Shown here: piece by piece, positions 35,482 through 51,478 of the stretch
Numbering within the stretch: the stretch's first letter is position 1
Layout of the letters: every line of letters begins with the position of its first letter
Assembly (NCBI RefSeq): GCF_030159955.1
Contig: NZ_BSNK01000001.1
Coordinates: 186,001-250,000 of the forward strand
Direction of reading: 5' to 3'
Origin: Algimonas ampicilliniresistens
Lineage (GTDB): Bacteria > Pseudomonadota > Alphaproteobacteria > Caulobacterales > Maricaulaceae
Length of the DNA stretch: 64,000 nt
Program-made: the position numbers and the translations under genes
The notes under the pieces: generated by a model
The model's database searches: none
What the model saw: only the letters and a program-made list of their open reading frames with translations
What the model was told of the DNA's origin: nothing

Positions 35482-37089
35482 TCAGGCCGCCAACCCCAAA
35501 GGCGAGAATAGCACATAGACGCCGACTACTAAGGCCACGAGTAGAAGCGCTGTCGGCTTGGCATAACGCCATGGGGTTAGGTCAACCTTATGCGGATCGG
35601 GCTGGGCTGTGGGGCCGGTACGTGGGGCCAAATGTGTGGCGACGGCGAGAGTGCCCAGCTCAATCGCGAATAGCACGGCGTAGAGGTGCAAGAAATGCAG
35701 CGTTACCACATCGTCGAACACGAACTTCAATAGACCGTAAGCGATGACGTGAAAGATGATGACGAGCTTGGCCCCAATGGCGGGCGTCCGCTTGGTGAAC
35801 AGACCGACGATGACGATGGTCACGATCGGAATGTTATAGAAACCGGTGAAGATGCGGATGATCTGCCATAGGCCCTGCGGCGCAAGGTATAGCAACGGCG
35901 CGACGATGAAGGAAAAGACCGCGATGACCACGCTGGCGATCATCGCGACCCGCACCGTTTGCGCTTCACTCATCGGTGTCTTCCGTGCGGGAACATAGAC
36001 GTCGAGCACGAACAGGGTCGCGGCGCTGTTGAGCAGCGAGTTGAAGGAGCTGAACACCGCGCCGAGCAGGACAGCGAGGAAGAAGCCCATCACCCAGATC
36101 GGGAGTAGGTCTTGCACAAGTTGCGGGAAGGCTAGATCGATCGAGGTGAGGCCGGGGCCGTAGAGGTGAAAGGCGATGACGCCGGGGATCATCATAAAAA
36201 ACGGCACTAGCACTTTGAAAAACCCAGATAGTAAAACGCCTTTCTGCCCTTCGGCGAGGCTACGCGCGGCAAGGGTTCGCTGGATGACATATTGATTGGT
36301 GCACCAATAAAATAGATTGGCGATAATCATGCCAGTGAAGAGCGTGCCAAACGGAGTCGGGTCGGTCTGGTCACCAATGGCATTCAGTTTTTCGGGATGG
36401 TCGCTGAGTAGGCGGCCGAGGCCGTCGCCCATGTTGCCATCGCCCAGTGCCGAGAGGCCCAAGCACAGAACGAGCGCGCCAACGATCAGTAGGCCGAGCC
36501 CATTGATTGTATCTGAAACGGCGACCGCTTTAAGTCCGCCAAACACGGCATAGAGCGCGCCGACAACGCCAATGACGAGCACAGTTGCGACCAATCCACC
36601 AAATTCTGACAGGCCTAACAGGGTCGGCACGTCGAAGATTTTGATGACCGCGATGGAGCCCGAATAGAGCACGGACGGAATGGTCACGAGGCCGTAACCG
36701 AGCATAAACAGCACGACTGAATAGCGTCGTACATCGGCGTCATAACGATCGTTGAGGAATTCCGGCAGTGTCGTGAACGCGCCCTTGAGATAGCGCGGCA
36801 GGAAAATCATCGCCATGGCGATGGTCGAAATGGCGGCGGTGACCTCCCACGCCATGCTCGACATATTGTGGCCGTAAGCGGAGCCATTTAACCCGATTAA
36901 CTGTTCTGCCGACAGGTTGGTGAGGAGCAGAGACCCGGCAATAAACAAACCGCCAAGATTACGTCCGGCGAGGAAATAGCCGTCTTGCGTCTGCACTTCA
37001 TCGCGAGATGCCCGATAGGAAACATAGGCTACGCCCGCCATGAAAACGGCGCAGCTGACAAGGACGAAAATCAGGGACGAACCGCTCAT
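35482..37089 (-). CDS. Sodium/solute symporter (SSS family) of the sulfonate divergon
   Basis: A 535-residue inner-membrane Na+ symporter with about 14 membrane segments. It has DGYFLAGRNLGGLFIAGSLLLTNLSAEQLIGLNG, FGGLKAVAVSDTINGLG and FYWCTNQYVIQRTLAARSL, all SSS hallmarks of the sugar/polyol branch. It starts 34 bp after the stop of the FMN monooxygenase gene and on the same strand, so the two form an operon. The gene order, with a GntR/oxidoreductase/YeiH operon diverging, suggests it imports the monooxygenase substrate, which would then be an anionic sugar-like sulfonate. That is an inference from context. The protein is related to, but clearly distinct from, the other symporter at 32147. 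Confidence 0.88.
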   Translation of the reverse strand: MSGSSLIFVLVSCAVFMAGVAYVSYRASRDEVQTQDGYFLAGRNLGGLFIAGSLLLTNLSAEQLIGLNGSAYGHNMSSMAWEVTAAISTIAMAMIFLPRYLKGAFTTLPEFLNDRYDADVRRYSVVLFMLGYGLVTIPSVLYSGSIAVIKIFDVPTLLGLSEFGGLVATVLVIGVVGALYAVFGGLKAVAVSDTINGLGLLIVGALVLCLGLSALGDGNMGDGLGRLLSDHPEKLNAIGDQTDPTPFGTLFTGMIIANLFYWCTNQYVIQRTLAARSLAEGQKGVLLSGFFKVLVPFFMMIPGVIAFHLYGPGLTSIDLAFPQLVQDLLPIWVMGFFLAVLLGAVFSSFNSLLNSAATLFVLDVYVPARKTPMSEAQTVRVAMIASVVIAVFSFIVAPLLYLAPQGLWQIIRIFTGFYNIPIVTIVIVGLFTKRTPAIGAKLVIIFHVIAYGLLKFVFDDVVTLHFLHLYAVLFAIELGTLAVATHLAPRTGPTAQPDPHKVDLTPWRYAKPTALLLVALVVGVYVLFSPLGLAA

Positions 37090-37123
37090 TGATGTGACCT
37101 AGTCGGGCTCGCCCACCTTGTCA

Positions 37124-38281
37124 TCAACTGCGGGGTCCTGCGCCTAAGGGGGTGGGAGGGGTTGCCGATGGGACACGCCCATAAGCCTGCGGCAATGATG
37201 ATGTTTTCATCTGTGACAGGATGCGGGACCCAAATAGTTTCGCTTCGTCGATGTGCGGATATCCCGAGAAGATGAAGGCGCGGATGCCCATTTTCATATA
37301 ACTCTCAATCTCGCTCATCACCTGATCTGTAGAGCCAACAATAGCGGCCCCACAGCCAGACCGCGCGCGACCAATCCCGGTCCAGAGATGCGGTTCAACA
37401 TAGCCAAACTGGTCGGCTAATTCGCGCGCTCGCGCCTGATGCGACACACCCAGACTGATACTGTCATGGGCGCGATCGCGGATCAGCTTGCCATATTCAT
37501 CGTCGAGCTGGCTTACGAGGTAATCTGCATATTCCCGAGCCTCTGCCTCTGTGTCGCGAACAATCACATGGGCGCGCAGGCCATAATCTAGTGTGCGGCC
37601 ATAGCGGTCGGCGACGGCGTGAACGGCCTTCATGCGTTCGGCCAGCTGGTTCTTGGTTTCCGGCCACATCAGATAAACATCACAATGCTCTCCACACAGA
37701 TCGAGCGCTGAGGGTGAGTAGCCGCCGAAATAGAGCAGGGGTCCGCCATTCTGCTGATAGGGTTTGGCGGGTGCGGCGGGGACATCGGTGAAGTCGTAAA
37801 TCTCACCGTGAAAATCGATCACGTCCTGAGTCCAAGCCTGTTTGAGGATTGAGACTACTTCGCGCGACCGCTGATAGCGATAGGCACTGTCGGCGCGTTC
37901 GCCCGGAAAGTCCGAACTAATGATGTTTACCGTCAGTCGACCCTCCAGCATATGATCCAGAGTAGCCAAGGTCCGCGCGAGCATGATCGGCTGCATCTCG
38001 CCGCAGCGGACGGCGGCGAGCATATTGATCCGCTCGGTCAGCGGGGCGCAGCCTGCGACGAAGGACAATGTGTCTTGTCCGACCTGGTAGGAAGACGGGC
38101 AAAGGATATTGCGAAAGCCTTGTGCCTCAGCCTCCAATAGGATGTCGCGGCAATGGGTCCAGCTTGATTTTAAATCATCGTCGGGGACGCCGAGAAATTG
38201 ATAATCGTCTGAGCAAAGCGCGGAAAACCATGAAATTTCCGGGTCACGAAGATCGGGTGATGTGATGGGAACGATGCTCAT
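37124..38281 (-). CDS. SsuD-type FMNH2-dependent sulfonate monooxygenase
   Basis: A 385-residue luciferase-like (LLM) monooxygenase. Such enzymes cut C-S bonds of sulfonates with FMNH2 and O2, giving an aldehyde and sulfite. It follows the E. coli SsuD order throughout and keeps the active-site residues: His238 in RAHVIVRD, Arg307 in [10 protein letters not shown] and Tyr341 in SGYPHIDEA, the counterparts of SsuD His228, Arg297 and Tyr331. PLLYFGGYS and DVYLMWPE are also shared. The SsuD Cys54 position is not conserved. Relatives include SmoC, which desulfonates sulfoquinovose. No flavin reductase gene is linked, so reduced FMN must come from elsewhere. It heads the operon with the symporter at 35482 and diverges from the GntR gene. 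Confidence 0.87.
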
Positions 38282-38333
38282 GGCAAGCCTGCCTGATGGG
38301 TTGAAAACAGAGATTGCCTAACACTCAAATCAG

Positions 38334-38355
38334 AGTATATCAATACTGTATCAAT
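38334..38355. promoter_or_regulatory. Candidate GntR operator
   Basis: AGTAT-ATCA-ATACT (38334-38347) is a perfect dyad. A TATCAAT direct repeat at 38338-38344 and 38349-38355 overlaps it, with 11-bp spacing. It lies between the divergent monooxygenase (start 38281) and GntR (start 38368) genes, where a GntR/HutC-type regulator would control both operons. Confidence 0.6.
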
Positions 38356-38367
38356 TCGGGGAAAAGC

Positions 38368-39081
38368 ATGACGCCGTCACGGCCATTGCCGCGCAGTATC
38401 GAGATCAGCGAAACGCTAATCCGGGAGATTGCGTCGGGGCTTTTGCCCGACGGCTCGCGCCTGCCCACGGAACGGCAAATGGCAGCTGATTACGGCGTCG
38501 CGGTTGGAACCTTGCGTAAGGCGCTGGCCGTGCTTGAGGAAAAGGGTTTGCTGGAACGGGTTCAGGGTTCTGGTAATTATGTCCGCAGGCGCGCCAATGT
38601 TCAAAGCGTCTATTCCCAATTCCGTTTGGAAAAGCTGGGCGGTGGTGGCTTACCGACAGCGCAGATCGTGGATCTGATGAACACGACGTCTCCTGAGTCC
38701 GCGCTGGCTTTCGGGTTTTCAGCCACGGCGCTCAGGATCGACCGATTGCGATCACTCGACGGACACCCGGTCGCACTCGAACGCATTTGGTTGGATGGCC
38801 GATATGGGGCGTCAGCGGACGCGTCCCAGATAAGCGAGTCCCTCTATGCTTTCTACCGCGATCATCTCGGTTTGGTTATTTCGCGGGTCGAAGACAGTGT
38901 TGGCGTGTCTAACCTGCCAGCTTGGGCAAAGCTACCGGGGATCAATGCTGGAGACGCGTCCGGCTATATTGAACGACGGGCGTGGAGCCAGTCCGGCGAG
39001 GCGGCGGAATATTCCCAAACATGGTTCGACCCGGCCCGGGCGCGTTTCATCAATCGGATCGAGGGTCTGTCGGTATCATGA
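38368..39081 (+). CDS. GntR-family regulator with UTRA sensor domain
   Basis: A 237-residue regulator. The N-terminal winged helix (residues about 10-78) reads ETLIREIASGLLPDGSRLPTERQMAADYGVAVGTLRKALAVLEEKGLLERVQGSGNYV, a typical GntR/HutC reader. The UTRA ligand domain follows (RIDRLRSLDGHPVALERIWLDG, AEYSQTWFDPARARFINRI). UTRA domains usually bind sugars or small acids. ATG 38368 follows GGGGAAAA; a TTG 54 bases earlier is possible but weak. The stop overlaps the next start as ATGA. The likely target is the dyad in the 86-bp divergent promoter, with the substrate or a metabolite as inducer. Confidence 0.93.
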   Translation: MTPSRPLPRSIEISETLIREIASGLLPDGSRLPTERQMAADYGVAVGTLRKALAVLEEKGLLERVQGSGNYVRRRANVQSVYSQFRLEKLGGGGLPTAQIVDLMNTTSPESALAFGFSATALRIDRLRSLDGHPVALERIWLDGRYGASADASQISESLYAFYRDHLGLVISRVEDSVGVSNLPAWAKLPGINAGDASGYIERRAWSQSGEAAEYSQTWFDPARARFINRIEGLSVS

Positions 39082-40154
39082 AAAAATACGGCATTATCGG
39101 CTGTGGCATGATGGGGCTCGAGCATATCGAGAATATCAATCTGCTAGAGGGCGCAATGGTTCATACGGTCTACGACCCGGTTGCGGAGCTGGCGAAATTA
39201 GCGGCCGTGAGAGCCGGCGGGGCTGTGATTAGGTCATCCATCGAACAGTTAGTGGCTGACCCAGACCTGGACGCCATCGTGATTGTCAGCCCCAATTTTC
39301 TCCATGTCGATCAGCTCGAAATCATTGCATCGCACGCAACGCTGCCAATTCTATGCGAGAAACCGCTCTATACCGATCCAGGCCAAGTGGATCGATTGGC
39401 GCGGTTTGAGAAAAGCTACGGCGCACCCGTCTGGGTCGCGATGGAATATCGCTACATGCCGCCTATCGCGAAACTGATCGAGCAATGCGACGCCGTCACG
39501 GGCGGTGTCAAAATGCTGAGCATTCGGGAGCACCGATTTCCGTTCTTACCAAAGATCGGTAATTGGAACCGGTTTTCAGAGAACACTGGTGGGACGATGG
39601 TTGAGAAATGCTGCCATTTCTTCGACCTGATGCGTCTGATTACGGGCGCGGAACCGATCCGGGTCAGTGCAACCGCCGGACAAGCCGTCAATCATCTGGC
39701 GGAACGCTATGAGGGCCGGACGCCGGATATTTGGGATTCGGGATACGTCCTGTTCGATTTCGACAACGGGGCTCGGGCGATGTTAGAGCTGTGCATGTTT
39801 GCCGACGGATCGCAATGGAATGAAGAAATCAGCGCGGTTGGCGCCAAGGGCAAAATTGAATGCCGCTTGCCTGGTCCGCATCGGTTCTGGCCTGCTGGCA
39901 TTGATCTTATTCCGCAACTCACCACGGCCCCACGCAGTCCGAAAAACCCTGTCACGATAGATGTGCCTATTGATGAAACTTTGCTGATGGCTGGCGATCA
40001 TCACGGGTCCACTTTTTATCAGCATGAGCGGTTTCTCGACGTCGTGCGAGGGGAGGCTAAGGTTGAAGTGACGCTTACCGATGGTCGGCGCGCTGTAGAG
40101 ATGGGATTGGCGGCCCAGACAGCGGCAACAGACCATTGTGTGATTGATCTATGA
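39078..40154 (+). CDS. Gfo/Idh/MocA-family NAD(P)-dependent oxidoreductase or glycosidase
   Basis: A 358-residue protein with the N-terminal Rossmann motif GIIGCGMMGLEH and the family EKP motif (CEKP, Glu94-Pro96). The C-terminal beta-sheet domain carries REHRFPFLPKIGNWNRFSE, then GGTMVEKCCHFFDLM, with His180 in the catalytic position. Members oxidise or reduce sugars and inositols. Some relatives (GH109, and GH188 sulfoquinovosidases) use bound NAD+ to cleave glycosides, and this placement beside an SsuD-type enzyme makes a sulfosugar role plausible. It overlaps the GntR gene by ATGA and the YeiH gene follows closely, so all three are coupled. Dehydrogenase versus glycosidase cannot be decided from sequence alone. 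Confidence 0.9.
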   Translation: MKKYGIIGCGMMGLEHIENINLLEGAMVHTVYDPVAELAKLAAVRAGGAVIRSSIEQLVADPDLDAIVIVSPNFLHVDQLEIIASHATLPILCEKPLYTDPGQVDRLARFEKSYGAPVWVAMEYRYMPPIAKLIEQCDAVTGGVKMLSIREHRFPFLPKIGNWNRFSENTGGTMVEKCCHFFDLMRLITGAEPIRVSATAGQAVNHLAERYEGRTPDIWDSGYVLFDFDNGARAMLELCMFADGSQWNEEISAVGAKGKIECRLPGPHRFWPAGIDLIPQLTTAPRSPKNPVTIDVPIDETLLMAGDHHGSTFYQHERFLDVVRGEAKVEVTLTDGRRAVEMGLAAQTAATDHCVIDL

Positions 40155-40176
40155 CCCAGATGACTTGGAACCTTTG

Positions 40177-41205
40177 ATGGGTGAGGCGGCCTCAGTTGAG
40201 ACGAAGTCTCTAGCAAAGACACTCGTCAGTGCCGTTCCGGGGTTGGGACTTGTGATTATCGCGACTGCCTGCGCTTACGCCCTGGCCACGCTCCTCCATC
40301 TTCCCTCAGTGATTGTCGCCTTGATTGTCGGTATGGCGCTTCATCCTCTACTGACACGGATATCCGTAATCGGACCAGGCGTGTTTTTCGCCGCTGATCC
40401 CTTGATGCGAATAGGGGTGGCCTGTCTTGGGGCAGGTGTGAATGCGGCGCTGTTGCTGACCCTGGGTTGGCCAATCTTTGCAACGTTGAGCCTTGCAATT
40501 AGCGCGACCATTCTATGCGGCTTGGTCGTCGGAAAATGGCTCGGTCAATCACGACGCTTCAGTGTTTTATCGGCGGGCGCCGTGGCGATTTGCGGTGCGT
40601 CTGCTGCGCTTGCCATTTCCTGCGCGCTGCCAAAGACGGATGAGGAAAACGGTGATGTTTCGGTCGTCATCGTCGCTGTCAGTCTTTTATCGGCAGCTGG
40701 CATTCTTCTTTATCCGCTTTTAACAAGCGCACTGGCGTTAAGCGATGCCTCGGCTGGGTTCGTGCTCGGTGGCTCGCTTCACAATGTGGCACAAGCGATT
40801 GCTGCTGGGTTCTCTGTCTCTGACCCGGCAGGCGAAATGGCGACGTTGGTCAAAATGTCCCGGGTCGCGATGTTGGCGCCTATTGTCATGCTTGTCGCTC
40901 TTACCTTCCGTAGGACGGGCGAAAGTGAAGGTGGCGCGCGCAGGCTGGCTTTGCCGCCAATTTTCCTTTTAGGATTCCTCGCACTCATGGGTGCCAGTTC
41001 AGCCAATCTTATACCGCAGAGTGTTGAGACAGGCCTTGGCTATGTGTCCAAAGCCTGTCTGCTGCTCGCCATGACCGCCATTGGTTTGCGAACACCGATC
41101 ATGGATATGGTCAGGTTGGACCGCAGAGCGATCGTTTTGCTGTTGCTCGAGACTGTCACCATCCTATTGGTGGTTTTGATCGCCGTGCAGTTTATCCCGA
41201 TTTAG
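40177..41205 (+). CDS. YeiH/YadS-type putative sulfite/sulfate exporter
   Basis: A 342-residue inner-membrane protein of the PF03601 (YeiH) family with about 10 hydrophobic segments. Conserved family sequences are visible: LGAGVNAALLL, AICGASAALAI (around residue 135), SLHNVAQAIAAGF and the terminal WL-free segment TAIGLRTPIMDM. Members are proposed anion (sulfate/sulfite) exporters and accompany desulfonation genes in several organisms. The ATG at 40177 is chosen; an in-frame TTG at 40144 would overlap the preceding gene by 11 bases. It would remove the sulfite made by the SsuD-type enzyme, which is toxic. It is the last gene of its operon. Confidence 0.85.
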   Translation: MGEAASVETKSLAKTLVSAVPGLGLVIIATACAYALATLLHLPSVIVALIVGMALHPLLTRISVIGPGVFFAADPLMRIGVACLGAGVNAALLLTLGWPIFATLSLAISATILCGLVVGKWLGQSRRFSVLSAGAVAICGASAALAISCALPKTDEENGDVSVVIVAVSLLSAAGILLYPLLTSALALSDASAGFVLGGSLHNVAQAIAAGFSVSDPAGEMATLVKMSRVAMLAPIVMLVALTFRRTGESEGGARRLALPPIFLLGFLALMGASSANLIPQSVETGLGYVSKACLLLAMTAIGLRTPIMDMVRLDRRAIVLLLLETVTILLVVLIAVQFIPI

Positions 41206-42011: not shown

Positions 42012-44354
42012 CTAGAAGTCGACATGTAGCGCCGCGCCAAAGATCCGCGGGTCCAGCAGGAACGCACTCTTAAAGCTACCCACAAGGTTAGAGTTCGTTT
42101 CCAAGAAGGTGATGCTGTTCTCGTCCAGAACATTTTTGACGAAAAAGGTCAGATCCCAAGGCATATCATCATTGGCGATTGCGACCTGGAGGTCGAGCTG
42201 ATCCCAGCCTTCGACCTTATCAGATGGAGTATTGAACTCACGCGAGAAGAAGCCCGTTTGATTATAATAATCAACGCGTGGGGTAACCCTCCAACTGTCA
42301 CCAACTTCATACTCATATTCAGCGGCGACTTTGAGGGTTCGCTTAGGTGAGTTCGGCAAGTCATTGCCCTGGATTTCAAAGAACGTGCCGCCCCTGGCTG
42401 CATCCGATGATAGGAACGAACTCTGGATTTGAGCGCTCAACAGACCGAGCGCGCCTTCGAGTCGGAGTCCGTTTCCGGGCGCGTAGACGGTTTCGACTTC
42501 GAGACCATAGACCTCGGATTTCGGGATGTTGACGTTGGTCGCCAGCGTCCCGACAATATTGCCGACAATCAGGGACTGATAGTCATAATAAAAGGCGGCC
42601 GTGTTGAGCTGCAAGGCCCCGTCAGCGAAAATGCTCTTTGCGCCGATTTCATAGGCGTCAATCACCTCGTCTTCAAAGACGGGATTGACCGCATTGCCGG
42701 GGTTAAATCCGCCGGACTTGTACCCGCGTGAGAAGGACGCGTAGATATTTGTGTCATCTGTGCCGGCTATCTGCGGCGACCAGTTCAACACCGCGCGACC
42801 CGTAACCTTGTCAAAGCTCGCTTCCTGCACATTCGGTGCAGGCAGAGCGAACAGGCCGTTGGCGGTGCTGATGTTTTTCGTATCGTCGGAATAACGTAGG
42901 CCTCCGATGAATTCGAGATCATCCGAGAGATCGACATAAATTTCGCCAAACACGGCGTAGCTTTCCACCGCTCCGGTTGTTGTCAGCGCAACGACCGCTG
43001 CTGCAGGCAGGTAGGTGTTGACCGAACCGCCGCCATCAGAATTGAGATAATAGCCCCCGACAAGGAAGTCGAAACGACCGCCCAGATCAGACGCTAGGCG
43101 CACTTCTTGGCTGAACTGATCGCGGAAACCTTTGGCCGTCTGGGCTGTGCGGTAATCAGTTGTTGTCACGAAAATATCGTTGGGCTGGTCGAATAGTTGA
43201 TAGGTTAGAACACCATTGCCGTTGCCATCGTCGGCCACCGTCCGCGCACCAAACGTACCGGGGTTGAAGGCGTTGGGGCGGTAACCCTGATCGAAGTCGC
43301 GGATGGAACGCGAATTGCCATCGCGATAGCCCGTGACGGAGGTCAGCAGGAAATTTCCGAAGTCGTGGTTCAGCTCGAAGGTTGCGAGGAAATCATCATT
43401 ATCCTGCACCGGGTTAATGTCGATATTGACGGTGCGAAGGTCGGATGGGTTCGGCACGAAGGTACCGTCGCGCGTGATGCCGGGCAAAAGGAACGCGTCG
43501 AGACGGAATGTGCTGGTCGGGAATTGCGTGTCGACACGATCTGGTGAGCAGCCAAATGCCGGGTCGGGCGAGCACAGTGTTTTGACGGCATTGGCGCGGT
43601 TACTGTCTTCGTTGAAATAGGTCAGTACAAGATCGGCTGAGGTCGTCCCATTGTCGAACCGCGTTGAAGATCGCAGCGTATATTGGTCGCGTCCATCGAT
43701 CCGTCCGCCATCAAACAGGTTCTTCGTATAGCCATCGCGTTTGACGAAGTTAGCCGCGAAACGCTGGGACAGGACATCATTGATCGGCAGGTTAAGCGCG
43801 CCGCTGGCACGAACCCCATTAAAGGATTCGCCTTGAATAGTGACATAGCCGCCATACTCGTCAGTCGGCTTTTGACTGATGAAGTTGATGACACCGCCGG
43901 TCGTGTTGCGCCCTTGCAGCGTGCCTTGTGGTCCGCGCAGGACCTCGATCCGTTCAAGGTCAAAATATTCGCCAAACGTCGTCCCGGATTGCAAGAAAAC
44001 TCCATTGTTCAGCACGCCAATATTGGTGTCTGAAGTGCCGCCAAAAGATTGCGAGCCAACGCCGCGAATTGTGATGTTGCGATTGGCAGATAGTAAAACG
44101 TTGGGAACATTGAACTGCAGGTCCAACGTGTCTTCTATCCGCGCGGCTTCAAGATCAGCCGCGCTGAGCGCGGTAATGGCAATCGGCACTTCTTGCAGCG
44201 TCTGCTCGCGTTTCTGCGCGGTGACGATGATGACATCCATATCCGCATCGTCCTGAGCATCCTGCGCAAAAGCAGTGCCAGCACTGCTCAAGATCGTCGA
44301 AACGGCGAGCAATGTCGCCAAGCTATAGGCTGGACTTTTGATGGATGTATTCAT
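42012..44354 (-). CDS. TonB-dependent receptor of the lipoprotein catabolic cluster
   Basis: A 780-residue outer-membrane receptor. The signal peptide is LLAVSTILSSAGTAFAQ, followed by DADMDVIIVTAQKREQTLQEVP, the TonB box and start of the plug, as in the large FyuA/CirA-like group of receptors widely found in sphingomonads. The plug has NITIRGVGSQ and IEVLRGPQGTLQGRNTTGGVINFIS. The barrel ends in GAALHVDF. ATG 44354 follows GGGGAG; an upstream in-frame start at 44378 is not supported. Its promoter region carries the shared 22-bp dyad, so it is very likely regulated with the enzyme genes at 44.5-51.5 kb. In that context it would import the substrate, which is not known. Confidence 0.9.
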   Translation of the reverse strand: MNTSIKSPAYSLATLLAVSTILSSAGTAFAQDAQDDADMDVIIVTAQKREQTLQEVPIAITALSAADLEAARIEDTLDLQFNVPNVLLSANRNITIRGVGSQSFGGTSDTNIGVLNNGVFLQSGTTFGEYFDLERIEVLRGPQGTLQGRNTTGGVINFISQKPTDEYGGYVTIQGESFNGVRASGALNLPINDVLSQRFAANFVKRDGYTKNLFDGGRIDGRDQYTLRSSTRFDNGTTSADLVLTYFNEDSNRANAVKTLCSPDPAFGCSPDRVDTQFPTSTFRLDAFLLPGITRDGTFVPNPSDLRTVNIDINPVQDNDDFLATFELNHDFGNFLLTSVTGYRDGNSRSIRDFDQGYRPNAFNPGTFGARTVADDGNGNGVLTYQLFDQPNDIFVTTTDYRTAQTAKGFRDQFSQEVRLASDLGGRFDFLVGGYYLNSDGGGSVNTYLPAAAVVALTTTGAVESYAVFGEIYVDLSDDLEFIGGLRYSDDTKNISTANGLFALPAPNVQEASFDKVTGRAVLNWSPQIAGTDDTNIYASFSRGYKSGGFNPGNAVNPVFEDEVIDAYEIGAKSIFADGALQLNTAAFYYDYQSLIVGNIVGTLATNVNIPKSEVYGLEVETVYAPGNGLRLEGALGLLSAQIQSSFLSSDAARGGTFFEIQGNDLPNSPKRTLKVAAEYEYEVGDSWRVTPRVDYYNQTGFFSREFNTPSDKVEGWDQLDLQVAIANDDMPWDLTFFVKNVLDENSITFLETNSNLVGSFKSAFLLDPRIFGAALHVDF

Positions 44355-44417
44355 GACACGTCTCCCCTGTGTTGCCACTTTGATGGCCGCTTTTTCAGCT
44401 GATGGGAGATCGTAACC

Positions 44418-44481: not shown

Positions 44482-45873
44482 CTATTGAGGTTTAGCATAA
44501 ACTGCGTTCAGTAGCTCTTGGAAGTAGCTTCGAACGTCACCCTCAAAGACCTGAGTCATCAACACGCCCGTGGTCTCAGTTTCCTCATCGATCCAGAAAT
44601 AGGTAGAGGCAGCGCCCGCCCAAAACAGACCGCATTGCGGAAAGACCGTGCCGTCATGTGTTTCGCTTTCCCGGACTGCAAAGCCGAGCCCGAAGCCACG
44701 CTTGTCGAGAAACGCATCTTGCGCTTTCGCGGTTGCAGGAAGTTGATCCCGGCTCGCTTCGGCCCAAATTTCGGGAGAGACCAAACGCGGCGATCCATTT
44801 ATAAGTGCGTTGGTGAAAGCGAGGTAATCATCCGCATCCGCGACCATGCCTGCGCCGCCAAATTCAAAGTCGGGTGTCTTTGTGTAGATGCCATCGCGAT
44901 AGGGATCGACCCGATAGGGGGTCTGTGGCTTAAGGTCATCAATCGGTGTTGTGTAATCGATCGAGCTCCTCGCGGGGGTTTGCGATGGGACTATATAGGC
45001 GCTGGTAAAGTCGTCTTGGCGTTCCGGGTCTATGATGAAACTCGAATCCGTCATGCCAGTGGGGATGAAAATATTCTCGTCTAAATAATCGCTGAGCGAC
45101 TGGCCCGACACTGTTGCGACGACCGCACCGAGAACATCTGTCGAATTTCCATAGGTAAACTGTTGACCCGGATCATGTTTCAACGGGGCCATCGAAATCC
45201 GCTCCGCAAACATCTCATTCCCAACAACTGGGTCCATGCCATTCGTGGGTGCATCGGACACGCCCGGTCCAGCAGGTACGCCTAGCTTCGCATAGATGGC
45301 GGCAATCGGATCGGTCTTGGCACCCGTCCGGTAAGTAAGGCCCGTCGTATGCCGCATCAGATCACGAATCGTGGGCGCCCGGCTGGGGGGGCGTGTCGCG
45401 GCTCCAGTCTCGTCTGTTGCGACTTTGATGTCAGCAAAGGCGGGGAGATAGCGACTGATCGGTGCGTCGAGCTCTAGTTGGCCTTTGTCTACTAGCTGTA
45501 AGGCCGCGATGGTCGTGACCGCTTTGGTCATCGAATAAATGCGAAACAGCGAGTCCGTCTGCATCGGTTTTTGGTCTTCAAGATCGGCGAAACCATACGC
45601 CTTTTTCAAAACAATTTCGCCCTTTTGTGTAATCTGCACAACGGCTCCGGGGGCGATGCCTCGATCCATCATATGTGCCATTAAGCCATCGATCTTCGTC
45701 TCAAATTCATTATCAAACTGTGCCGTTTCATAAGGCGCGCTGACCTGACAGGCACTGGCATCTGCGACGGTGGACTGTTGGTCTGTGCCGGCCGTCGGCG
45801 TGTGTTCGCATCCGATCACTGAGAAGGCAGAAATGGCGAGCGCCGCCGTCGTCACTTTAAGAGAAGTCTTCAT
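44482..45873 (-). CDS. Class C beta-lactamase-like serine hydrolase, lipoprotein
   Basis: A 463-residue serine hydrolase of the beta-lactamase/transpeptidase fold (EstB-like esterases). The signal peptide ends in SAFSVIGC (Cys22), so it is a lipoprotein. Catalytic motifs are Ser114-x-x-Lys117 in YSMTKAVTT and YGN in QFTYGNSTDVLG, and the fold continues to the usual KTP/HxG-equivalent region (ECGLFWAGAASTYFWIDEE context). Class C-type antibiotic resistance is not implied, because esterases and peptidases share these motifs. The start ATG at 45873 overlaps the stop of the preceding alpha/beta-hydrolase gene as ATGA, so the two are coupled. The ORF can be extended to 46047 only through a region that reads as the other gene. 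Confidence 0.85.
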   Translation of the reverse strand: MKTSLKVTTAALAISAFSVIGCEHTPTAGTDQQSTVADASACQVSAPYETAQFDNEFETKIDGLMAHMMDRGIAPGAVVQITQKGEIVLKKAYGFADLEDQKPMQTDSLFRIYSMTKAVTTIAALQLVDKGQLELDAPISRYLPAFADIKVATDETGAATRPPSRAPTIRDLMRHTTGLTYRTGAKTDPIAAIYAKLGVPAGPGVSDAPTNGMDPVVGNEMFAERISMAPLKHDPGQQFTYGNSTDVLGAVVATVSGQSLSDYLDENIFIPTGMTDSSFIIDPERQDDFTSAYIVPSQTPARSSIDYTTPIDDLKPQTPYRVDPYRDGIYTKTPDFEFGGAGMVADADDYLAFTNALINGSPRLVSPEIWAEASRDQLPATAKAQDAFLDKRGFGLGFAVRESETHDGTVFPQCGLFWAGAASTYFWIDEETETTGVLMTQVFEGDVRSYFQELLNAVYAKPQ

Positions 45874-46943
45874 GGTGTCGTCTCCAATGTCCCTAAGAAT
45901 GTTCGGATCGCCGAATTGGCGAGTTCCGGTTGTTCCATGGATGTCCAATGCCCGATGCCGGGTAGGCGAGCGATCTGCAAGTTTGTCTCGGTCACGAGCA
46001 GACTGTCGATGATCTCTGGAAGGAATATTCCGTCCGCTTCGCCCCAAATGAATAGGGCGGGAATTTCGAGTCTGGCATCAGCGGAGGGCCATTGCGACCC
46101 ATCATCGATTTCATCCCAAGGTGGGATATTGGCGCGGTACCAATTCATGCCGCCATGCACCGCCTCAGCCCGTCCGACAGAGGCGTGGAACAGCTCGATC
46201 TCGCGCGCAGACAACTCTCCGGTAGCCGCTAATTTGGCATAAGATTGTTCCGCGACAGTTTTGGCAATTCCGTTGGCCTCAATGGCATCTAACGTGATCG
46301 CCCGAAACCGCTGCATATAGTCGGATATCGCTTGTTGCTCAGGGGATGCAGCCAATTGGGCGAGCAGATTGTTGAGCGGTGGGGCGCTCATACCGATGAC
46401 TCCGCGCAAGCGATCCGGGCGCCACTGTGCATAGGCAAAGGAGAGCGGCGCGCCCCAATCATGTCCGATCAGAACAAAGCGTTCACCGGGGGACAGAGCT
46501 TCGGCGAGCCGGTCGAGCTGTGCGGCTAAGGCCTTCACCGTGTAGGCGTCTGATGCTTCCGGTTTGGATGACAGACCTGCACCGAGGCCATCAACAGCGA
46601 TAACCCGATAGTCTGACGCTAAGAACTCAATCTGGTCGTGCCAACTGAACCAGTAAGAGGGAAACCCATGATAGAGCAGGATGAGGGGACCGTCGCCAGC
46701 CTCGACAAAATGAATGCGATGCTCACCGTCTTGGAACCAGCCTTCCCGATAATCCAATCGCGCGTCGGACGTAGACTCGGCATAGGAAATCGTCGGGTCG
46801 ACGATGTCAGTTTCCGCGGAATAGGTGATTGTGGGAGAGGAGTTAGGGCCAGCACAAGCGACCAAGAAGACCGCCGCTGATACGAAACAAGAGCGGGCCA
46901 AAATGGCGATCAATCGATGTCGAGTCTTCCGACTTGCTTTCAA
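45870..46943 (-). CDS. Alpha/beta-hydrolase (epoxide hydrolase/dehalogenase-like), lipoprotein
   Basis: A protein of about 357 residues with a lipoprotein signal (LIAILARSCFVSAAVFLVACAG). The fold motifs are HGFP (oxyanion hole), nucleophile Asp in GHDWGAP, a cap domain, the acid region ALFIWGEADG and the catalytic His in LPGIGHWTSMEQP. An Asp nucleophile is typical of epoxide hydrolases and haloalkane dehalogenases rather than esterases. Start is uncertain: ATG 46979 overlaps the divergent gene and operator, while TTG 46943 follows AAGGGG and is used here. The gene precedes the serine hydrolase with an ATGA overlap. Lipid anchoring of such an enzyme is unusual and suggests it works on substrate in the periplasm or at the cell surface. 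Confidence 0.85.
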   Translation of the reverse strand: MKASRKTRHRLIAILARSCFVSAAVFLVACAGPNSSPTITYSAETDIVDPTISYAESTSDARLDYREGWFQDGEHRIHFVEAGDGPLILLYHGFPSYWFSWHDQIEFLASDYRVIAVDGLGAGLSSKPEASDAYTVKALAAQLDRLAEALSPGERFVLIGHDWGAPLSFAYAQWRPDRLRGVIGMSAPPLNNLLAQLAASPEQQAISDYMQRFRAITLDAIEANGIAKTVAEQSYAKLAATGELSAREIELFHASVGRAEAVHGGMNWYRANIPPWDEIDDGSQWPSADARLEIPALFIWGEADGIFLPEIIDSLLVTETNLQIARLPGIGHWTSMEQPELANSAIRTFLGTLETTP

Positions 46944-46954
46944 GTAAACACCCC

Positions 46955-46976
46955 TTATTGTAAAATTGGTCAACAA
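46955..46976. promoter_or_regulatory. Dyad operator 2 of the TetR cluster
   Basis: TTATTG (46955-46960) and CAACAA (46971-46976), one mismatch from symmetry, lie 10 bp apart with TAAAATTGGT between. It sits between the divergent alpha/beta-hydrolase and cytochrome-PQQ dehydrogenase genes and would control both. Compared with sites at 44418 and 51479, the arms and TG..AA....GTCAA core are shared. Confidence 0.65.
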
Positions 46977-46989
46977 CATGGCGGGCAGG

Positions 46990-48945
46990 ATGTCAAGAGA
47001 CAGAGCAAAGCGCGAGATGGGGGCTAGATATGGCCTGGATCATTCGGCTGTCCTGTTGACGGGGCTGGGTGTGATCGCCTTATCGTCCTGCAGCTCTGGC
47101 ACCGATGTCTCTATAGATAATCCCGCGCAAATCTCGGGTCCAACAATTGATGAGATGATCCAGGCGGCGATCCAAGCTGACGACGGAGATCATCCAGGTC
47201 GTCAGCTCTATATCGATAATTGCGCGTCTTGTCATGACGGCAGCGGTGTCGAAGCCCCCACCCGAGAAGCGATCAGTCTGCAAGGGAGTGAAGCGATTGT
47301 CCGGTCACTCGCCTTTGGCATCATGCAAGTTCAGGCTGAGCATCTAACGCCGATGGAGCGCCGCCATATTGCCGAATATCTCGGCGACCCAACGGCTGGG
47401 TCCGCAGTCGAGAATGCCCAAGCCAATCGGTGCGAAACCGACTTCAATCCAGGGGACGCGCTCTGGACGCAATGGGGCAGTGATCAGCGCAACACGCGTT
47501 ATGCACCGCATTCAACCTTAAGCGCCGATCAAATCGAGACGCTGGAATTGAAATGGTCCTTCGGTTTTCCGGGGGCCGCACGGGCGCGGTCGCAGCCAGC
47601 CGCGACCAGTACAGCGCTATTCACCGGCTCACAGAGCGGTCTCGTCTATGCGCTCGACCGAGAGACGGGCTGCATTCACTGGACATACCCGGCCAAGGCC
47701 GAAGTTCGGGTCGCGCCGATGATCGAGGTTGATGCGCAGGGCCGCGCTGAGATGCTCTACTTCGGAGATTTTGACGCCAATATTTATGCGCTGAACGCCC
47801 AGACGGGTGAGGCGCTTTGGGTCAGTTCGGTGAAGGACCATCCCGCCGGAACGATAACGGGCTCACCCGTCCTGCATGACGGTCGTCTCTTTGTCCCCAT
47901 GTCGTCGCTCGAAGTGATCGACGCTTACACGCCGGGCTATGAATGCTGCACCTTTCGGGGCGGTATGACGGCAGTTGACGCGACGACGGGGGAAACAATC
48001 TGGCGGATGCATACGGTTGCCGAGCCCCAGGAGCGCGGCGTCAATAGTGTCGGTGCGAAACGCTTCGGGCCATCCGGTGCGCCGATCTGGAATTCCCCAA
48101 CCATCGATGCCAAGCGCGGACTTCTCTATGCTGGAACGGGTGAGAATTATTCCTCACCGGCCAATGATTTGAGCGATGCGATCCTCGCAATTTCAATGGA
48201 GACAGGCGAGATTGTTTGGGCAACCCAGACGATTGAAGGCGATGCGTGGAACGCGGCCTGTGGTCCCTATGGCACGACCGTCAATTGCCCTGAAGAAGAT
48301 GGTCCCGATTTCGATTTTGGCGCGCCGCCGATCCTTACGACTACCGCCGCAGGTCGCGACATTCTGCTGGCCGGGCAGAAGTCCGGCATGATCTACGGGC
48401 TTGATCCCGAAGACGGCGGTAAGATCCTCTGGGACATGCGTAAAGGCAGAGGCGGCTTTAATGGCGGGGTTCATTGGGGCATGGCCACTCACAAGGGCCA
48501 GCTCTTCATCGGTATTGCCGACACGCCGGGTAATCGCTTTGCGGTGGGCGATAATCGCCAAGGTATGCACGTTAAGGACATCACGACGAACGCAACCGTC
48601 TGGAGCGTGATCGAACCCGATAAATGTGACGAGCCGACACATCACTGCCGCACAGCCGTGTCCGCGCCGCCGACTGTCACCGACACAGCCGTCTTCGCCA
48701 GCACGCTCAACGGCATTGTGAAAGCCTATGATATTGAGTCCGGAGACACGCTCTGGTCCTTCGATACGTTGCGTGATTTTCAAACCACCAATGGGGTGAT
48801 GGCTCGGGGTGGGTCGATCGACTCAGCGGGTATTGTGGTCGTTGGCGAGCAGGTGATCACTAATTCCGGCTATGATAAATTTGGTCAAATCCCGGGCAAT
48901 GTGCTGCTGGTTTTCGGACCCGAAGAGGACGTCAAAGGGGAATAG
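46990..48945 (+). CDS. Cytochrome c-PQQ dehydrogenase (polyvinyl-alcohol-dehydrogenase-like), lipoprotein
   Basis: An alcohol- or sugar-oxidising quinoprotein of about 650 residues, periplasmic and lipid-anchored (VIALSSCSSG). The N-terminal cytochrome c domain has CASCH with the heme-binding Cys-Cys-His, and LTPMERRHIAEYLG. The propeller begins WTQWGSDQRNTRYAPHSTL and repeats the W-docking motif (ALDRETGCIHWTYP, ALNAQTGEALWVSS, AVDATTGETIWRM, AISMETGEIVWATQ). An adjacent Cys-Cys pair in YECCTFRGG matches the vicinal disulfide known in PQQ dehydrogenases and polyvinyl alcohol dehydrogenase. Start is uncertain; ATG 46990 is used, others at 46978 and 47017. PQQ synthesis genes are not in this window. 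The substrate is probably a secondary alcohol from the imported compound (inference). Confidence 0.85.
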   Translation: MSRDRAKREMGARYGLDHSAVLLTGLGVIALSSCSSGTDVSIDNPAQISGPTIDEMIQAAIQADDGDHPGRQLYIDNCASCHDGSGVEAPTREAISLQGSEAIVRSLAFGIMQVQAEHLTPMERRHIAEYLGDPTAGSAVENAQANRCETDFNPGDALWTQWGSDQRNTRYAPHSTLSADQIETLELKWSFGFPGAARARSQPAATSTALFTGSQSGLVYALDRETGCIHWTYPAKAEVRVAPMIEVDAQGRAEMLYFGDFDANIYALNAQTGEALWVSSVKDHPAGTITGSPVLHDGRLFVPMSSLEVIDAYTPGYECCTFRGGMTAVDATTGETIWRMHTVAEPQERGVNSVGAKRFGPSGAPIWNSPTIDAKRGLLYAGTGENYSSPANDLSDAILAISMETGEIVWATQTIEGDAWNAACGPYGTTVNCPEEDGPDFDFGAPPILTTTAAGRDILLAGQKSGMIYGLDPEDGGKILWDMRKGRGGFNGGVHWGMATHKGQLFIGIADTPGNRFAVGDNRQGMHVKDITTNATVWSVIEPDKCDEPTHHCRTAVSAPPTVTDTAVFASTLNGIVKAYDIESGDTLWSFDTLRDFQTTNGVMARGGSIDSAGIVVVGEQVITNSGYDKFGQIPGNVLLVFGPEEDVKGE

Positions 48946-48946
48946 A

Positions 48947-49993
48947 ATGAAACATGTAGGAATGTGTTTGATCGCAGCGGCGGCGTTGGTCGCATGCCAG
49001 TCGATTGGCATTGAAACCGACTCACCGAATGTGACTGAGGTAGATCTAGAATCTGGCGTCAAAGGCGTGCGCTTCATCGGCAAGACCGTGTCCGACATCG
49101 ACGAAACCCTAGCCTTTTATCAAGGCGTCGTGCCCTACACTCTGGTCCGTCGGGATCGGGTCGATCCTGCGATGCTTTATCCCTCCCAGTTTATTGCTGG
49201 CGATCACGACGAAATTGAAGTGGCCTTAGTCGACGCTCGTAACGTCTTCGTTCAGCTTGTCGATTTCGATCCGGACGCCCCTTCGGAGCCCTTTATTCGC
49301 CCGGTGAAAGGGCCTGGTTATACGCATATGTGCTTCATCTCACCGGCGTCTGACTCCGCGTTCACGAAGTTCCGGGAGAATGGACTGACTATGGTGACGC
49401 GCGGTGAAGAGCCTGTCGACCTCGGCGGTTACGGGATGCGCTACGCCTATGGGTTGGATCCAAACGGCGCCATGATCGAAACCGAAGTCGCCGACACGCC
49501 GCGACGTGATGGCGGACCATGGGTTGGGCATATTGGCTCGGCCACGCCGGACGCAGACCGGATGAGTGAGTTTTACACCAAAATTCTGGGTTATGGCCCG
49601 CGTCGTCGTGGCGAATATTCTGATCGCCCTCTGATCGATCAAGTGGTCGGGTACGACAATACAGTCGTGCGCAGTTCTTGGTTCGCTGCACGCAATATGG
49701 AAATCGAATTTTGGGAGTATATTAAGCCGCGGACAGAAGCGCGGGATGGGCACGCCATGCTGGACACGCTGGGCTATAATATGATCGCGTATGAGGTTGA
49801 AGATCTGGACGCAGAACGCGCACGTTTGGCGGATGCGACTGTGTTCTCAGACCCAATAATGACACCATTTGGCTGGCGTGTTGCGACAGGTTTGGACCCG
49901 GATGGTAATATCATCGCCCTGCATGAGCGCGTGTCTGCACCAGAGACGGAGTCGATTGACGCCATGCTCTGGATTGACCCCGCGACTTTCTAG
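48947..49993 (+). CDS. VOC-superfamily protein, tandem domains, lipoprotein
   Basis: A 348-residue protein with lipobox LVAC (about Cys17) and two vicinal-oxygen-chelate (glyoxalase/dioxygenase) domains. The first runs from GVRFIGKTVSDIDETLAFYQGV to THMCFISPASDSAF and AMIETEVAD. The second runs from VGHIGSATPDADRMSEFYTKILGYG to NIIALHER. Potential metal ligands are His in GYTHMCF and Glu in MIETEV for the first half, and His in VGHIG, Glu and His for the second. It starts 1 bp after the PQQ dehydrogenase stop, so it belongs to that operon. Known VOC enzymes act as ring-cleaving dioxygenases, lyases or isomerases; this one is not assignable. Lipid anchoring of a VOC protein is odd and repeats the theme of its neighbours. 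Confidence 0.8.
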   Translation: MKHVGMCLIAAAALVACQSIGIETDSPNVTEVDLESGVKGVRFIGKTVSDIDETLAFYQGVVPYTLVRRDRVDPAMLYPSQFIAGDHDEIEVALVDARNVFVQLVDFDPDAPSEPFIRPVKGPGYTHMCFISPASDSAFTKFRENGLTMVTRGEEPVDLGGYGMRYAYGLDPNGAMIETEVADTPRRDGGPWVGHIGSATPDADRMSEFYTKILGYGPRRRGEYSDRPLIDQVVGYDNTVVRSSWFAARNMEIEFWEYIKPRTEARDGHAMLDTLGYNMIAYEVEDLDAERARLADATVFSDPIMTPFGWRVATGLDPDGNIIALHERVSAPETESIDAMLWIDPATF

Positions 49994-50041: not shown

Positions 50042-50716
50042 ATGTCCTCGACAACACCCGCCAAGCGCCGCCGCTACAGCCCCGAGAAACGTCGGGCGAT
50101 GATCTTGGATCATGCAGCCGAAGTCGTGGCGAGCGAAGGCGTCAGTGCGGCGACGATGGAGCGCATTGCGCGTCAGGCTGACGTTAGCAAATCGCTGATC
50201 TATGCTTATTTCGAAAATGTGACCGAGCTGCTGCGCGAACTGCTGCAGCGTGAACTACGTCGTTTGCGACGCCTACAAGCGCAAGCGGCGGCGACAACCG
50301 AAGATTTCTCCGAGATGGTTCGCGCCGTCACCCATCAATATATTGGTTATATTGCCGAGCGGGGCTTGATCCTGCAGCGCTTACAATCCGAGCCGTCCCT
50401 AGCGGATGGTCGCGACCCAACAGATTATAGTCGCCCGGATGCGGTTCGTTTTGTAGCCAAAGTGGTGTCGGCCAATTTCGATATGCCGATGGACCTCGCG
50501 ATCGCCTGCACTGATATCTCATTCGGTATTCCTGCAGCAGCCGGTCATTTTCTCGAAAGCGAGACGACGGATCCTGCTTGGGTCGAGGACATCACCGTGC
50601 AGATGATCATTGGGTCGATTGAAGGTGTCAGCAACGCTTACAAAGCCGGTCAGCTGGCCAGCGTTGCGTCTGACGAGGACACGCTACATGGGGTGGATGG
50701 TGTGGCCGCCGTCTAG
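50042..50716 (+). CDS. TetR/AcrR-family regulator of the lipoprotein catabolic cluster
   Basis: A 224-residue repressor. The N-terminal helix-turn-helix (KRRAMILDHAAEVVASEGVSAATMERIARQADVSKSLIYAYFENVTELLRELL) is the classic TetR DNA-binding unit. The C-terminal all-helical domain binds the effector. It lies 48 bp after the VOC gene on the same strand. Its 3' end overlaps the convergent SDR gene by 33 bp. A 22-bp dyad recurs in front of the TonB receptor, the hydrolase/PQQ pair and the SDR gene, so this regulator is the best candidate for recognising it. The inducer is unknown. Confidence 0.92.
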   Translation: MSSTTPAKRRRYSPEKRRAMILDHAAEVVASEGVSAATMERIARQADVSKSLIYAYFENVTELLRELLQRELRRLRRLQAQAAATTEDFSEMVRAVTHQYIGYIAERGLILQRLQSEPSLADGRDPTDYSRPDAVRFVAKVVSANFDMPMDLAIACTDISFGIPAAAGHFLESETTDPAWVEDITVQMIIGSIEGVSNAYKAGQLASVASDEDTLHGVDGVAAV

Positions 50717-51442: not shown

Positions 51443-51478
51443 GGTGCCTCCAATATGGTCCATCGTCGACCGTGACAT

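What the first reader, a model, noticed from the sequence alone, without database searches (positions are those of the whole stretch)
35482..41205. A divergent symporter-desulfonase-GntR-Gfo/Idh-YeiH locus: a candidate minimal sulfosugar degradation system
Minus-strand operon: SsuD-type FMN monooxygenase (keeps the catalytic His/Arg/Tyr of SsuD), then an SSS Na+ symporter. Plus-strand operon: GntR-UTRA, Gfo/Idh/MocA protein, YeiH-type anion exporter. The combination reads as import, C-S cleavage to sulfite, sulfite export and handling of the desulfonated sugar. The known sulfo-SMO route of sulfoquinovose (SmoC with SmoA/SmoB and ABC import) differs: here the importer is SSS, the flavin reductase and the aldo-keto reductase are missing, and the Gfo/Idh protein may be the redox or GH188-like glycosidase part. 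The adjacent galactoside cluster suggests a marine plant or algal sugar diet. Substrate is inferred, not shown.
Basis: partly seen in the sequence, partly recalled or inferred. Interest (0 to 1): 0.78.

Follow-up and report, generated by a model that had tools for sequence, protein, structure and literature searches.

The report
Sulfoquinovose-degradation locus with sodium symporter
These genes very probably let an alphaproteobacterium take up and desulfonate sulfoquinovose, the sugar of plant and algal sulfolipids, by an already known route, here with a different importer and with two usual helper genes missing.

Summary
The five genes are real and intact. The LLM protein is a sulfoquinovose monooxygenase of the SmoC/SquD branch (E 4.5e-208 to 7oh2). 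The Gfo/Idh protein is a GH188 NAD-dependent sulfoquinovosidase with published catalytic and sulfonate-binding residues. So this is a sulfo-SMO plus GH188 cluster, a known kind, common in Roseobacter and Rhizobium relatives.

It departs from the usual cluster in two ways. First, an SSS symporter is the linked importer; homologues in two Burkholderiales sit beside a YihQ-type glycosidase, so sulfoquinovose or its glycerol glycoside is the likely cargo. Second, SmoA and SmoB are missing: the 99.65%-complete genome has no PF01613 flavin reductase, and its best SmoB match is an unlinked reductase at 36% identity. Same-genus G015 carries the same locus with smoB in place. The monooxygenase is no faster-evolving than G015's, so the pathway probably works with outside reductases.

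An unexplained ABH-PQQ-VOC-TetR-SDR module is linked to the SSS-type cluster in four genomes. Substrate and activities are inferred, not measured.

The parts
35482..37089 (-). SSS-family Na+ symporter (NF007790 type), proposed importer of sulfoquinovose or its glycerol glycoside
   Evidence: NF007790 696 bits over cut-off 401; 34 bases from smoC; 83% (G015) and 73% (G134, G142) identical copies linked to SmoC; 55% identical copy beside a YihQ-type glycosidase on a Burkholderia plasmid
37124..38281 (-). SmoC/SquD-type FMNH2-dependent sulfoquinovose monooxygenase
   Evidence: 7oh2 E 4.5e-208 and 7olf E 1.3e-205; TIGR03565 only 229 of 518 bits, so not SsuD itself
38337..38355 (.). Operator-like tandem repeat RTATCAAT-N3-GTATCAAT in the smoC-gntR divergent promoter
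   Evidence: Found at the same place in all 9 GntR-bearing loci scanned (window, L025, L028, L029, L030, L031, L002, L003, L005), up to 2 substitutions; none in the module-only stretch L123; 0.08 hits per shuffled window; one weaker second hit in the window at 7824
38368..39081 (+). GntR-UTRA regulator (start corrected from the TTG at 38314)
   Evidence: PF00392 and PF07702; operator position
39078..40154 (+). GH188 NAD+-dependent sulfoquinovosidase (SqgA-like)
   Evidence: 8zn9 E 3.8e-135, 8qc3 E 1.9e-104, 8qc2 E 1e-101; catalytic and sulfonate residues present
40144..41205 (+). YeiH-family anion exporter (PF03601), proposed sulfite exporter
   Evidence: PF03601 E 1.9e-58; TIGR00698 106 of 232.6 bits; 52% identical copy at the same place in G015; a YeiH-family gene also in the Rhizobium SL42 cluster, but such genes were seen in only 6 of 80 named SmoC loci
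42012..44378 (-). TonB-dependent receptor, linked; candidate outer-membrane importer (membership not shown)
   Evidence: PF00593 and PF07715; 83% identical at the matching place in G015
44482..46047 (-). Beta-lactamase-fold serine hydrolase with a lipoprotein-like N-terminus, linked; could deacylate sulfolipid (speculative)
   Evidence: PF00144; matching place in G015, 63%
45870..46979 (-). Alpha/beta hydrolase of epoxide-hydrolase type with a lipoprotein-like N-terminus; linked module
   Evidence: PF00561; nearest solved structures are epoxide hydrolases; linked in 4 genomes
46966..48945 (+). PQQ-type dehydrogenase with N-terminal cytochrome c; linked module, role unknown
   Evidence: PF01011 and PF13442; the 4 best hits in 150 relatives are the 4 SSS-type sulfo-SMO genomes
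48872..49993 (+). Double VOC/glyoxalase-fold protein; linked module, role unknown
   Evidence: PF13669 and PF00903; linked copies
50042..50716 (+). TetR regulator of the linked module
   Evidence: PF00440; linked copies
50684..51478 (-). Short-chain dehydrogenase of the linked module
   Evidence: PF13561; linked copies

Best explanation
The locus is a sulfo-SMO (sulfo-ASMO) sulfoquinovose pathway with a GH188 sulfoquinovosidase. The SSS symporter brings in sulfoquinovosyl glycerol or free sulfoquinovose with sodium. GH188 frees sulfoquinovose from its glycoside through a transient NAD+ oxidation at C3. The SmoC-type monooxygenase uses FMNH2 and O2 to cut the C-S bond, giving sulfite and 6-dehydroglucose. 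The YeiH protein exports the sulfite, and GntR-UTRA controls the divergent promoter through the conserved tandem repeat. The usual local helpers are gone. FMNH2 probably comes from a general PF03358-type reductase elsewhere in the genome. 6-dehydroglucose is probably reduced to glucose by the unlinked SquF-like aldo-keto reductase at G000:C1:717017-717871. Shown here: gene identities by sequence, residue conservation, conserved linkage, and the genome-wide absence of the SmoA family. Inferred: substrate, direction of transport, sulfite export, and both stand-in reductases (the aldo-keto reductase at about 0.5).
For: SmoC identity: 694 and 686 bits to 7oh2 and 7olf over residues 1-384 of 385, next best 192 bits. 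In one search's alignments the R-x-H pair and the Tyr of the SGYPH motif are kept (motif roles recalled). GH188: 454, 353 and 344 bits to 8zn9, 8qc3 and 8qc2. ArSqgA residues K107, Y136, R166, L170, K172, E189, H193 and H321 (PMC10755693) correspond to window K95, Y124, R153, L157, K159, E176, H180 and H308 (my count on the alignment; letters checked). Linkage: of 80 named SmoC loci, 77 have a SmoB-type reductase, 77 GH188, 79 GntR, 73 a SmoA-type reductase. The SmoB-type protein of G015 scores 417 bits to 7bby. Operator: all 9 GntR-bearing loci scanned. Importer: the SSS homologue (55%) sits in a Burkholderia plasmid cluster with an NF007746 glycosidase at 980 bits, glycerol kinase, a lactonase, an Edd-type dehydratase and a TSUP exporter; of 6 neighbours sought around its Paraburkholderia copy, 4 were found (glycosidase, aldehyde dehydrogenase, lactonase, TSUP). 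Function kept: pN/pS 0.10 for the monooxygenase and 0.20 for GH188 against G015; no significant rate difference for the monooxygenase in 6 of 6 outgroup comparisons. Reductase: among 17 monooxygenase-bearing genomes, 5 have SmoB and the other 12 have a SquF-like reductase, none both and none neither.
Against: No activity or growth data exist. The window genome has no SmoB orthologue (best 36%). The stand-in reductase lies in a clade of 19 rows of which 17 come from genomes without the monooxygenase, and 25 of 133 monooxygenase-negative relatives carry one (counted), so it may have another job. The SSS family also serves alpha-galactoside and inositol clusters, and a 57% identical copy in Staphylococcus saprophyticus has no sugar genes around it. 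YeiH-family genes are not a regular part: 6 of 80 loci; the window's YeiH score is below the TIGR00698 cut-off. YeiH and GntR evolve fast against G015 (pN/pS 0.48 and 0.39). For GH188, one of six outgroup comparisons gives significantly more changes on the window side (22 against 10, chi2 4.5). Of 6 Burkholderia neighbours sought in Paraburkholderia, glycerol kinase and the GlpD-type gene were not found. Two of the 17 genomes are only 65-67% complete.
Confidence: 0.87

Rival explanations
1. A sulfur-scavenging system: the monooxygenase releases sulfite for assimilation under sulfur limitation, as SsuD does, and the carbon is wasted or handled slowly, so SmoB is not needed.
For: SmoA and SmoB are missing. 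GH188-monooxygenase pairs without a SmoB or SquF gene nearby recur in G009, G023, G100, G148 and G092.
Against: An exporter of the YeiH family in the same operon fits sulfite surplus, not sulfur hunger. The regulator and its operator are those of the clusters that carry smoB and smoA. The glycosidase and sugar-type symporter fit sugar uptake.
Confidence: 0.15
2. A decaying pathway: smoA and smoB were lost and the rest is on its way out.
For: Same-genus G015 has smoB between the symporter and smoC. The window has only a 34-base gap there and no remnant. YeiH and GntR have raised pN/pS; one of six GH188 rate comparisons points to the window.
Against: All frames are open. The listed GH188 residues are kept. 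The monooxygenase is under strong constraint and not accelerated against its smoB-bearing relative. Five of six monooxygenase-bearing genomes of the family lack PF01613, including smoB-bearing G015 and G001, so lack of SmoA is not peculiar to this genome.
Confidence: 0.1
3. 6-dehydroglucose is handled by the linked short-chain dehydrogenase (50684-51478) or another enzyme of the PQQ/VOC module instead of SmoB.
For: The module is physically linked to the SSS-type cluster in 4 genomes.
Against: The dehydrogenase is present in G015 and G142, which have SmoB in the locus, and in G134, which has it elsewhere, so it does not track the loss of SmoB. The module carries no copy of the GntR operator and has its own TetR.
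Confidence: 0.07
4. The substrate is another sulfonate (methanesulfonate or an alkanesulfonate), as the deposited names of 7oh2 and 7olf say.
For: Molecule names 'Alkanesulfonate monooxygenase' and 'Methanesulfonate sulfonatase'.
Against: GH188 and a SmoB-type reductase are linked to this monooxygenase branch in 77 of 80 loci each. The alkanesulfonate monooxygenases 7jv3 and 1m41 score only 192 and 173 bits.
Confidence: 0.04

Closest known systems
Sulfo-SMO (sulfo-ASMO) pathway of Agrobacterium tumefaciens and Novosphingobium aromaticivorans (PMC9594981, PMC12890257, passages)
   Same: SmoC/SquD monooxygenase making sulfite and 6-dehydroglucose; aerobic proteobacteria
   Different: SSS instead of ABC import (Agrobacterium); GH188 in place of a GH31 glycosidase; no SmoA family and no SmoB orthologue in the genome
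GH188-bearing sulfo-SMO clusters of Roseobacter clade bacteria (PMC10755693)
   Same: smoC | gntR - GH188 order and operator
   Different: Of 80 named relatives, 77 carry a SmoB-type and 73 a SmoA-type reductase and 52 a TRAP permease gene (some loci cut by contig ends); here an SSS symporter and YeiH exporter, smoA and smoB absent
SqgA, the GH188 NAD+-dependent sulfoquinovosidase (8qc2, 8qc3)
   Same: Sequence family and eight listed catalytic and sulfonate residues
   Different: About 350 bits, so a distinct branch; 8zn9 is nearer at 454 bits
Burkholderia multivorans plasmid cluster with YihQ-type glycosidase, Edd-type dehydratase and lactonase, sulfo-ED-like by my reading
   Same: SSS symporter, 55% identical
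   Different: C-C cleavage type of route; no SmoC listed in the stretch
Sodium/glucose cotransporter entries 2xq2 and 3dh4 (recalled as the Vibrio galactose symporter vSGLT)
   Same: Family and sugar-symporter kind (198 bits)
   Different: Substrate

Membership tests
Sulfo-SMO pathway | SmoC/SquD FMN-dependent sulfoquinovose monooxygenase | tested here: met
   By sequence only: 694 bits to 7oh2; 80-locus linkage
Sulfo-SMO pathway | SmoB/SquF 6-dehydroglucose reductase | tested here: inconclusive
   No SmoB orthologue; a SquF-like reductase is unlinked and in a clade mostly from monooxygenase-negative genomes
Sulfo-SMO pathway | SmoA flavin reductase (PF01613) | tested here: not met
   No PF01613 protein in the genome, controls ring in 13 of 14; not strictly defining, since clusters without a flavin reductase are published (PMC9594981, passages)
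Sulfo-SMO pathway | Marker rule: SmoB plus SmoC within 10 ORFs (PMC13372026, passages) | tested here: not met
   No SmoB match in the window
Sulfo-SMO pathway | Sulfite release from sulfoquinovose | not testable with these tools
   Needs enzyme assay
GH188 sulfoquinovosidase | Sequence closest to characterised SqgA, not to inositol dehydrogenases | tested here: met
   344-454 bits against 64 bits; 8zn9, the best hit, is named only 'Oxidoreductase, putative'
GH188 sulfoquinovosidase | Sulfonate-binding R166, L170, K172 | tested here: met
   R153, L157, K159
GH188 sulfoquinovosidase | Active-site K107, Y136, E189, H193, H321 | tested here: met
   K95, Y124, E176, H180, H308
GH188 sulfoquinovosidase | Glu163 of ArSqgA | tested here: inconclusive
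   By my count it falls on R150, beside the conserved Glu151; the paper's or my numbering may be off by one
GH188 sulfoquinovosidase | NAD+-dependent cleavage of sulfoquinovosides | not testable with these tools
   Needs enzyme assay
SsuD alkanesulfonate monooxygenase | TIGR03565 score above cut-off | tested here: not met
   229 of 518.2 bits
YeiH family exporter | PF03601 above cut-off; TIGR00698 above cut-off | tested here: inconclusive
   PF03601 met (198 against 24.5); TIGR00698 not met (106 against 232.6)
NF007790 solute:sodium symporter | Score above curated cut-off | tested here: met
   696 against 401

The most novel reading that the evidence does not exclude
The SSS-type sulfo-SMO cluster and the neighbouring TonB receptor, serine hydrolase, epoxide-hydrolase-like protein, PQQ/cytochrome c dehydrogenase, VOC and SDR genes form one sulfolipid-utilisation locus. 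In it a sulfolipid-derived glycoside is first taken in and oxidised or trimmed in the periplasm before import and desulfonation. The evidence is linkage of the hydrolase, PQQ, VOC, TetR and SDR genes to this cluster in four genomes of two families, in three gene orders, with the symporter inside the PQQ/VOC module in one of them. The matching TonB receptor and serine hydrolase were seen only in the window and G015.
Probability: 0.13. Interest if true: 0.62.

Novelty: new variant of a known kind. Interest (0 to 1): 0.36.

Why it matters
Sulfoquinovose is produced at about 10 billion tons a year (PMC10755693). Genome surveys that require SmoB within 10 ORFs of SmoC (PMC13372026, passages) would miss this genome and similar reduced clusters. 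The SSS symporter is a candidate Na+-coupled sulfoquinovose importer that occurs beside two mechanistically different kinds of pathway. It also raises a testable question: which enzyme removes the reactive 6-dehydroglucose when SmoB is absent.

Tried and rejected
Gfo/Idh as the missing redox partner or as an inositol dehydrogenase: rejected by scores and residue conservation. SmoB hidden in the window: no match, best E 0.21. SmoA hidden in the genome: none by family, with controls, nor by one protein, without control. SDR as SmoB replacement: it does not track SmoB loss. Common GntR regulation of the PQQ module: no operator there; a second weak hit at 7824 is likely chance. VOC on plasmids: no match in 72,556 records at E 1e-20. 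VOC in a class sample: 4 of 385 genomes, the window's own and three at 30-32% identity. Rfam scan of the window: nothing at gathering scores. The VOC protein's nearest solved structures were uninformative. No structure was predicted. Papers not held: PMC9938184, PMC10507154, and the PNAS paper on the Agrobacterium pathway, so whether they describe SSS importers is unknown to me. Literature searches that showed no paper on an SSS importer or on Hyphomonadaceae for sulfoquinovose: (0 papers), and the listed top rows only (10 of 8,738; 15 of 316, none of the 15 holding the word sulfoquinovose), so this is weak evidence of absence. One search listed 9 papers; I read passages of three of them (PMC9594981, PMC12890257, PMC13372026).


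Full report
OBSERVATION. The window lies in a 3.26 Mb genome, 99.65% complete.

THE MONOOXYGENASE. It matches PDB 7oh2 and 7olf over residues 1-384 of 385 at 694 and 686 bits; the next structures are at 192 and 173 bits. I recall 7oh2 and 7olf as SmoC structures; their deposited names are alkanesulfonate monooxygenase and methanesulfonate sulfonatase, and a paper search for these codes found nothing useful. The assignment rests also on linkage. Several loci are cut by contig ends, so these are lower bounds. The reductase in G015 scores 417 bits to 7bby, recalled as SmoB.

THE GLYCOSIDASE. The Gfo/Idh protein scores 454, 353 and 344 bits to 8zn9, 8qc3 and 8qc2, against 64 bits for an inositol dehydrogenase. 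PMC10755693 (parts 1-3 of 4 read) assigns 8qc2 and 8qc3 to SqgA proteins, founders of GH188, and lists their residues. PMC11465081 (part 1 of 2 read) gives the sulfonate triad. Counting on the alignment (tag offset 13, inferred from the match), eight of the paper's nine residues are present in the window's protein. The ninth, Glu163, falls by that count on R150 beside the conserved Glu151, so I count it as inconclusive. The same paper states that GH188 occurs near-universally in sulfo-SMO clusters of marine Roseobacter clade bacteria.

THE REGULATOR SITE. Between smoC and gntR lies RTATCAAT-N3-GTATCAAT at 38337-38355. Allowing two substitutions, it was found at that place in all nine GntR-bearing loci scanned (window, L025, L028, L029, L030, L031, L002, L003, L005) and not in the module-only stretch L123. 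The window gave one more, weaker hit at 7824. Shuffled windows gave 0.08 on average. Two further loci were only printed and looked at by eye: L100, with GntR, shows a variant of the repeat, and L027, without GntR, a degenerate form; L026, without GntR, has only a short intergenic stretch and no visible repeat.

THE IMPORTER. In the 80 named loci the symporter occurs once, in Henriciella. Among the 17 monooxygenase-bearing relatives (the window's genome counted) it is linked to smoC in four: G000, G015, G142 and G134; four of the 17 were seen only with short flanks. It is 55% identical to a symporter on a Burkholderia multivorans plasmid beside an NF007746 glycosidase (980 bits; this model, PRK10426, is recalled as YihQ), an Edd-type dehydratase, a lactonase, glycerol kinase and a TSUP exporter. 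Of six of these neighbours sought around the Paraburkholderia caribensis copy, four were found and the two glycerol genes were not. I read these as sulfo-ED-type clusters. As a check on specificity, four other plasmid homologues at 39-45% identity lie in alpha-galactosidase (3) and inositol (1) clusters, and one at 57% in Staphylococcus saprophyticus has no sugar genes around it (7 contexts seen of 36 records with a match). The family is thus a sugar-symporter family, and the linkage, not the family, points to sulfoquinovose.

THE MISSING HELPERS. Same-genus G015 has SSS - smoB - smoC | gntR - GH188 - YeiH - TBDR - BLA - ABH, the window's order with smoB present. The window has a 34-base gap there and no smoB remnant. 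In the whole genome there is no PF01613 protein (controls ring in 13 of 14), two aldo-keto reductases, and three PF03358 reductases, none of which NCBIfam assigns as SsuE at E 1e-10. Of the 17 monooxygenase-bearing genomes, 5 lack PF01613, all in the window's family, which has 6 such genomes (one of the five, G009, is only 65% complete). PMC9594981 (passages) already says that some clusters lack the flavin reductase and are presumed to use others in the cell. In Henriciella G134 smoB lies elsewhere in the genome (62% identical). For the window's genome the best match is 36% identical.

WHO REDUCES 6-DEHYDROGLUCOSE? At E 1e-60 or better, a reductase like the window genome's unlinked one is found in 37 of 150 relatives. 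Twelve of the 37 are among the 17 monooxygenase-bearing genomes, in three of them beside the monooxygenase (G123, G120, G099), and 25 among the other 133. The 12 are exactly those without SmoB. This either-or pattern would arise by chance once in 6,188 draws if genomes were independent, which they are not: six of the twelve are one genus, and two of the 17 genomes are 65-67% complete. In the tree (49 rows, 22 of the 25 monooxygenase-negative ones) the SMO-linked genes of Sphingomonas, G123, G099 and G120 group together (93/85) and with the g22 genes (100/100). The window's gene sits in a neighbouring clade of 19 rows, 17 of them from genomes without the monooxygenase. The stand-in role is therefore plausible but not shown.

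IS IT WORKING? Frames are open. Against G015, pN/pS is 0.10 for the monooxygenase, 0.16 for the symporter, 0.20 for GH188, 0.39 for GntR and 0.48 for YeiH, with synonymous sites near saturation. In relative-rate comparisons with six outgroups each, the window's monooxygenase never differs significantly from that of smoB-bearing G015 (chi2 at most 0.62). For GH188 one of six comparisons exceeds chi2 3.84, towards the window (22 against 10); another leans the other way (11 against 22, chi2 3.67). On balance this argues against decay.

THE LINKED MODULE. An alpha/beta hydrolase, a PQQ-type dehydrogenase with an N-terminal cytochrome c, a double VOC protein, TetR and an SDR (45870-51478) are linked to the SSS-type cluster in G000, G015, G142 and G134, in three gene orders; in G142 the symporter lies between the SDR and TetR genes. 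The four best PQQ hits among 150 relatives are exactly these four genomes. Ten further genomes have weaker hits, 34-44% identical apart from one 55% fragment. I fetched stretches around the hit in eight of the ten; none showed VOC or TetR matches at E 1e-8. The module has no GntR site and its role is unexplained.

VERDICT. A sulfo-SMO plus GH188 sulfoquinovose locus, known in kind, with an SSS importer, a YeiH-family exporter, and SmoA and SmoB missing from the whole genome. Literature: PMC12890257 and PMC13372026 were seen as passages only; none of the rows listed described an SSS importer for sulfoquinovose, but those lists were cut and key papers were not held.

Noticed in passing
window 45870-51478: ABH-PQQ/cyt c-VOC-TetR-SDR module, linked to the SSS-type sulfo-SMO cluster in four genomes of two families in three gene orders; role unknown.
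   Followed up: partly
window 38337-38355: Tandem repeat RTATCAAT-N3-GTATCAAT, probable GntR operator, conserved from Rhizobium and Roseobacter relatives to this genome.
   Followed up: yes
L230:1-11540 and L231:4659-11780: SSS symporter homologue beside a YihQ-type glycosidase on Burkholderia multivorans and Paraburkholderia caribensis replicons; the genes around look like a sulfo-ED cluster.
   Followed up: partly
L026, L027, L035, L036, L037: smoC-GH188 pairs without a SmoB or SquF gene nearby in five relatives of the same order.
   Followed up: partly
window 41218-41841 (-): 207-aa lipoprotein-like protein with no Pfam or NCBIfam match, between YeiH and the TonB receptor; no match to it at the corresponding place in G015.
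   Followed up: no
window 29971-35477: Neighbouring galactoside-type genes: a 710-aa frame not searched against families, a second SSS symporter (34% identical to the first) and a GH42 beta-galactosidase.
   Followed up: no
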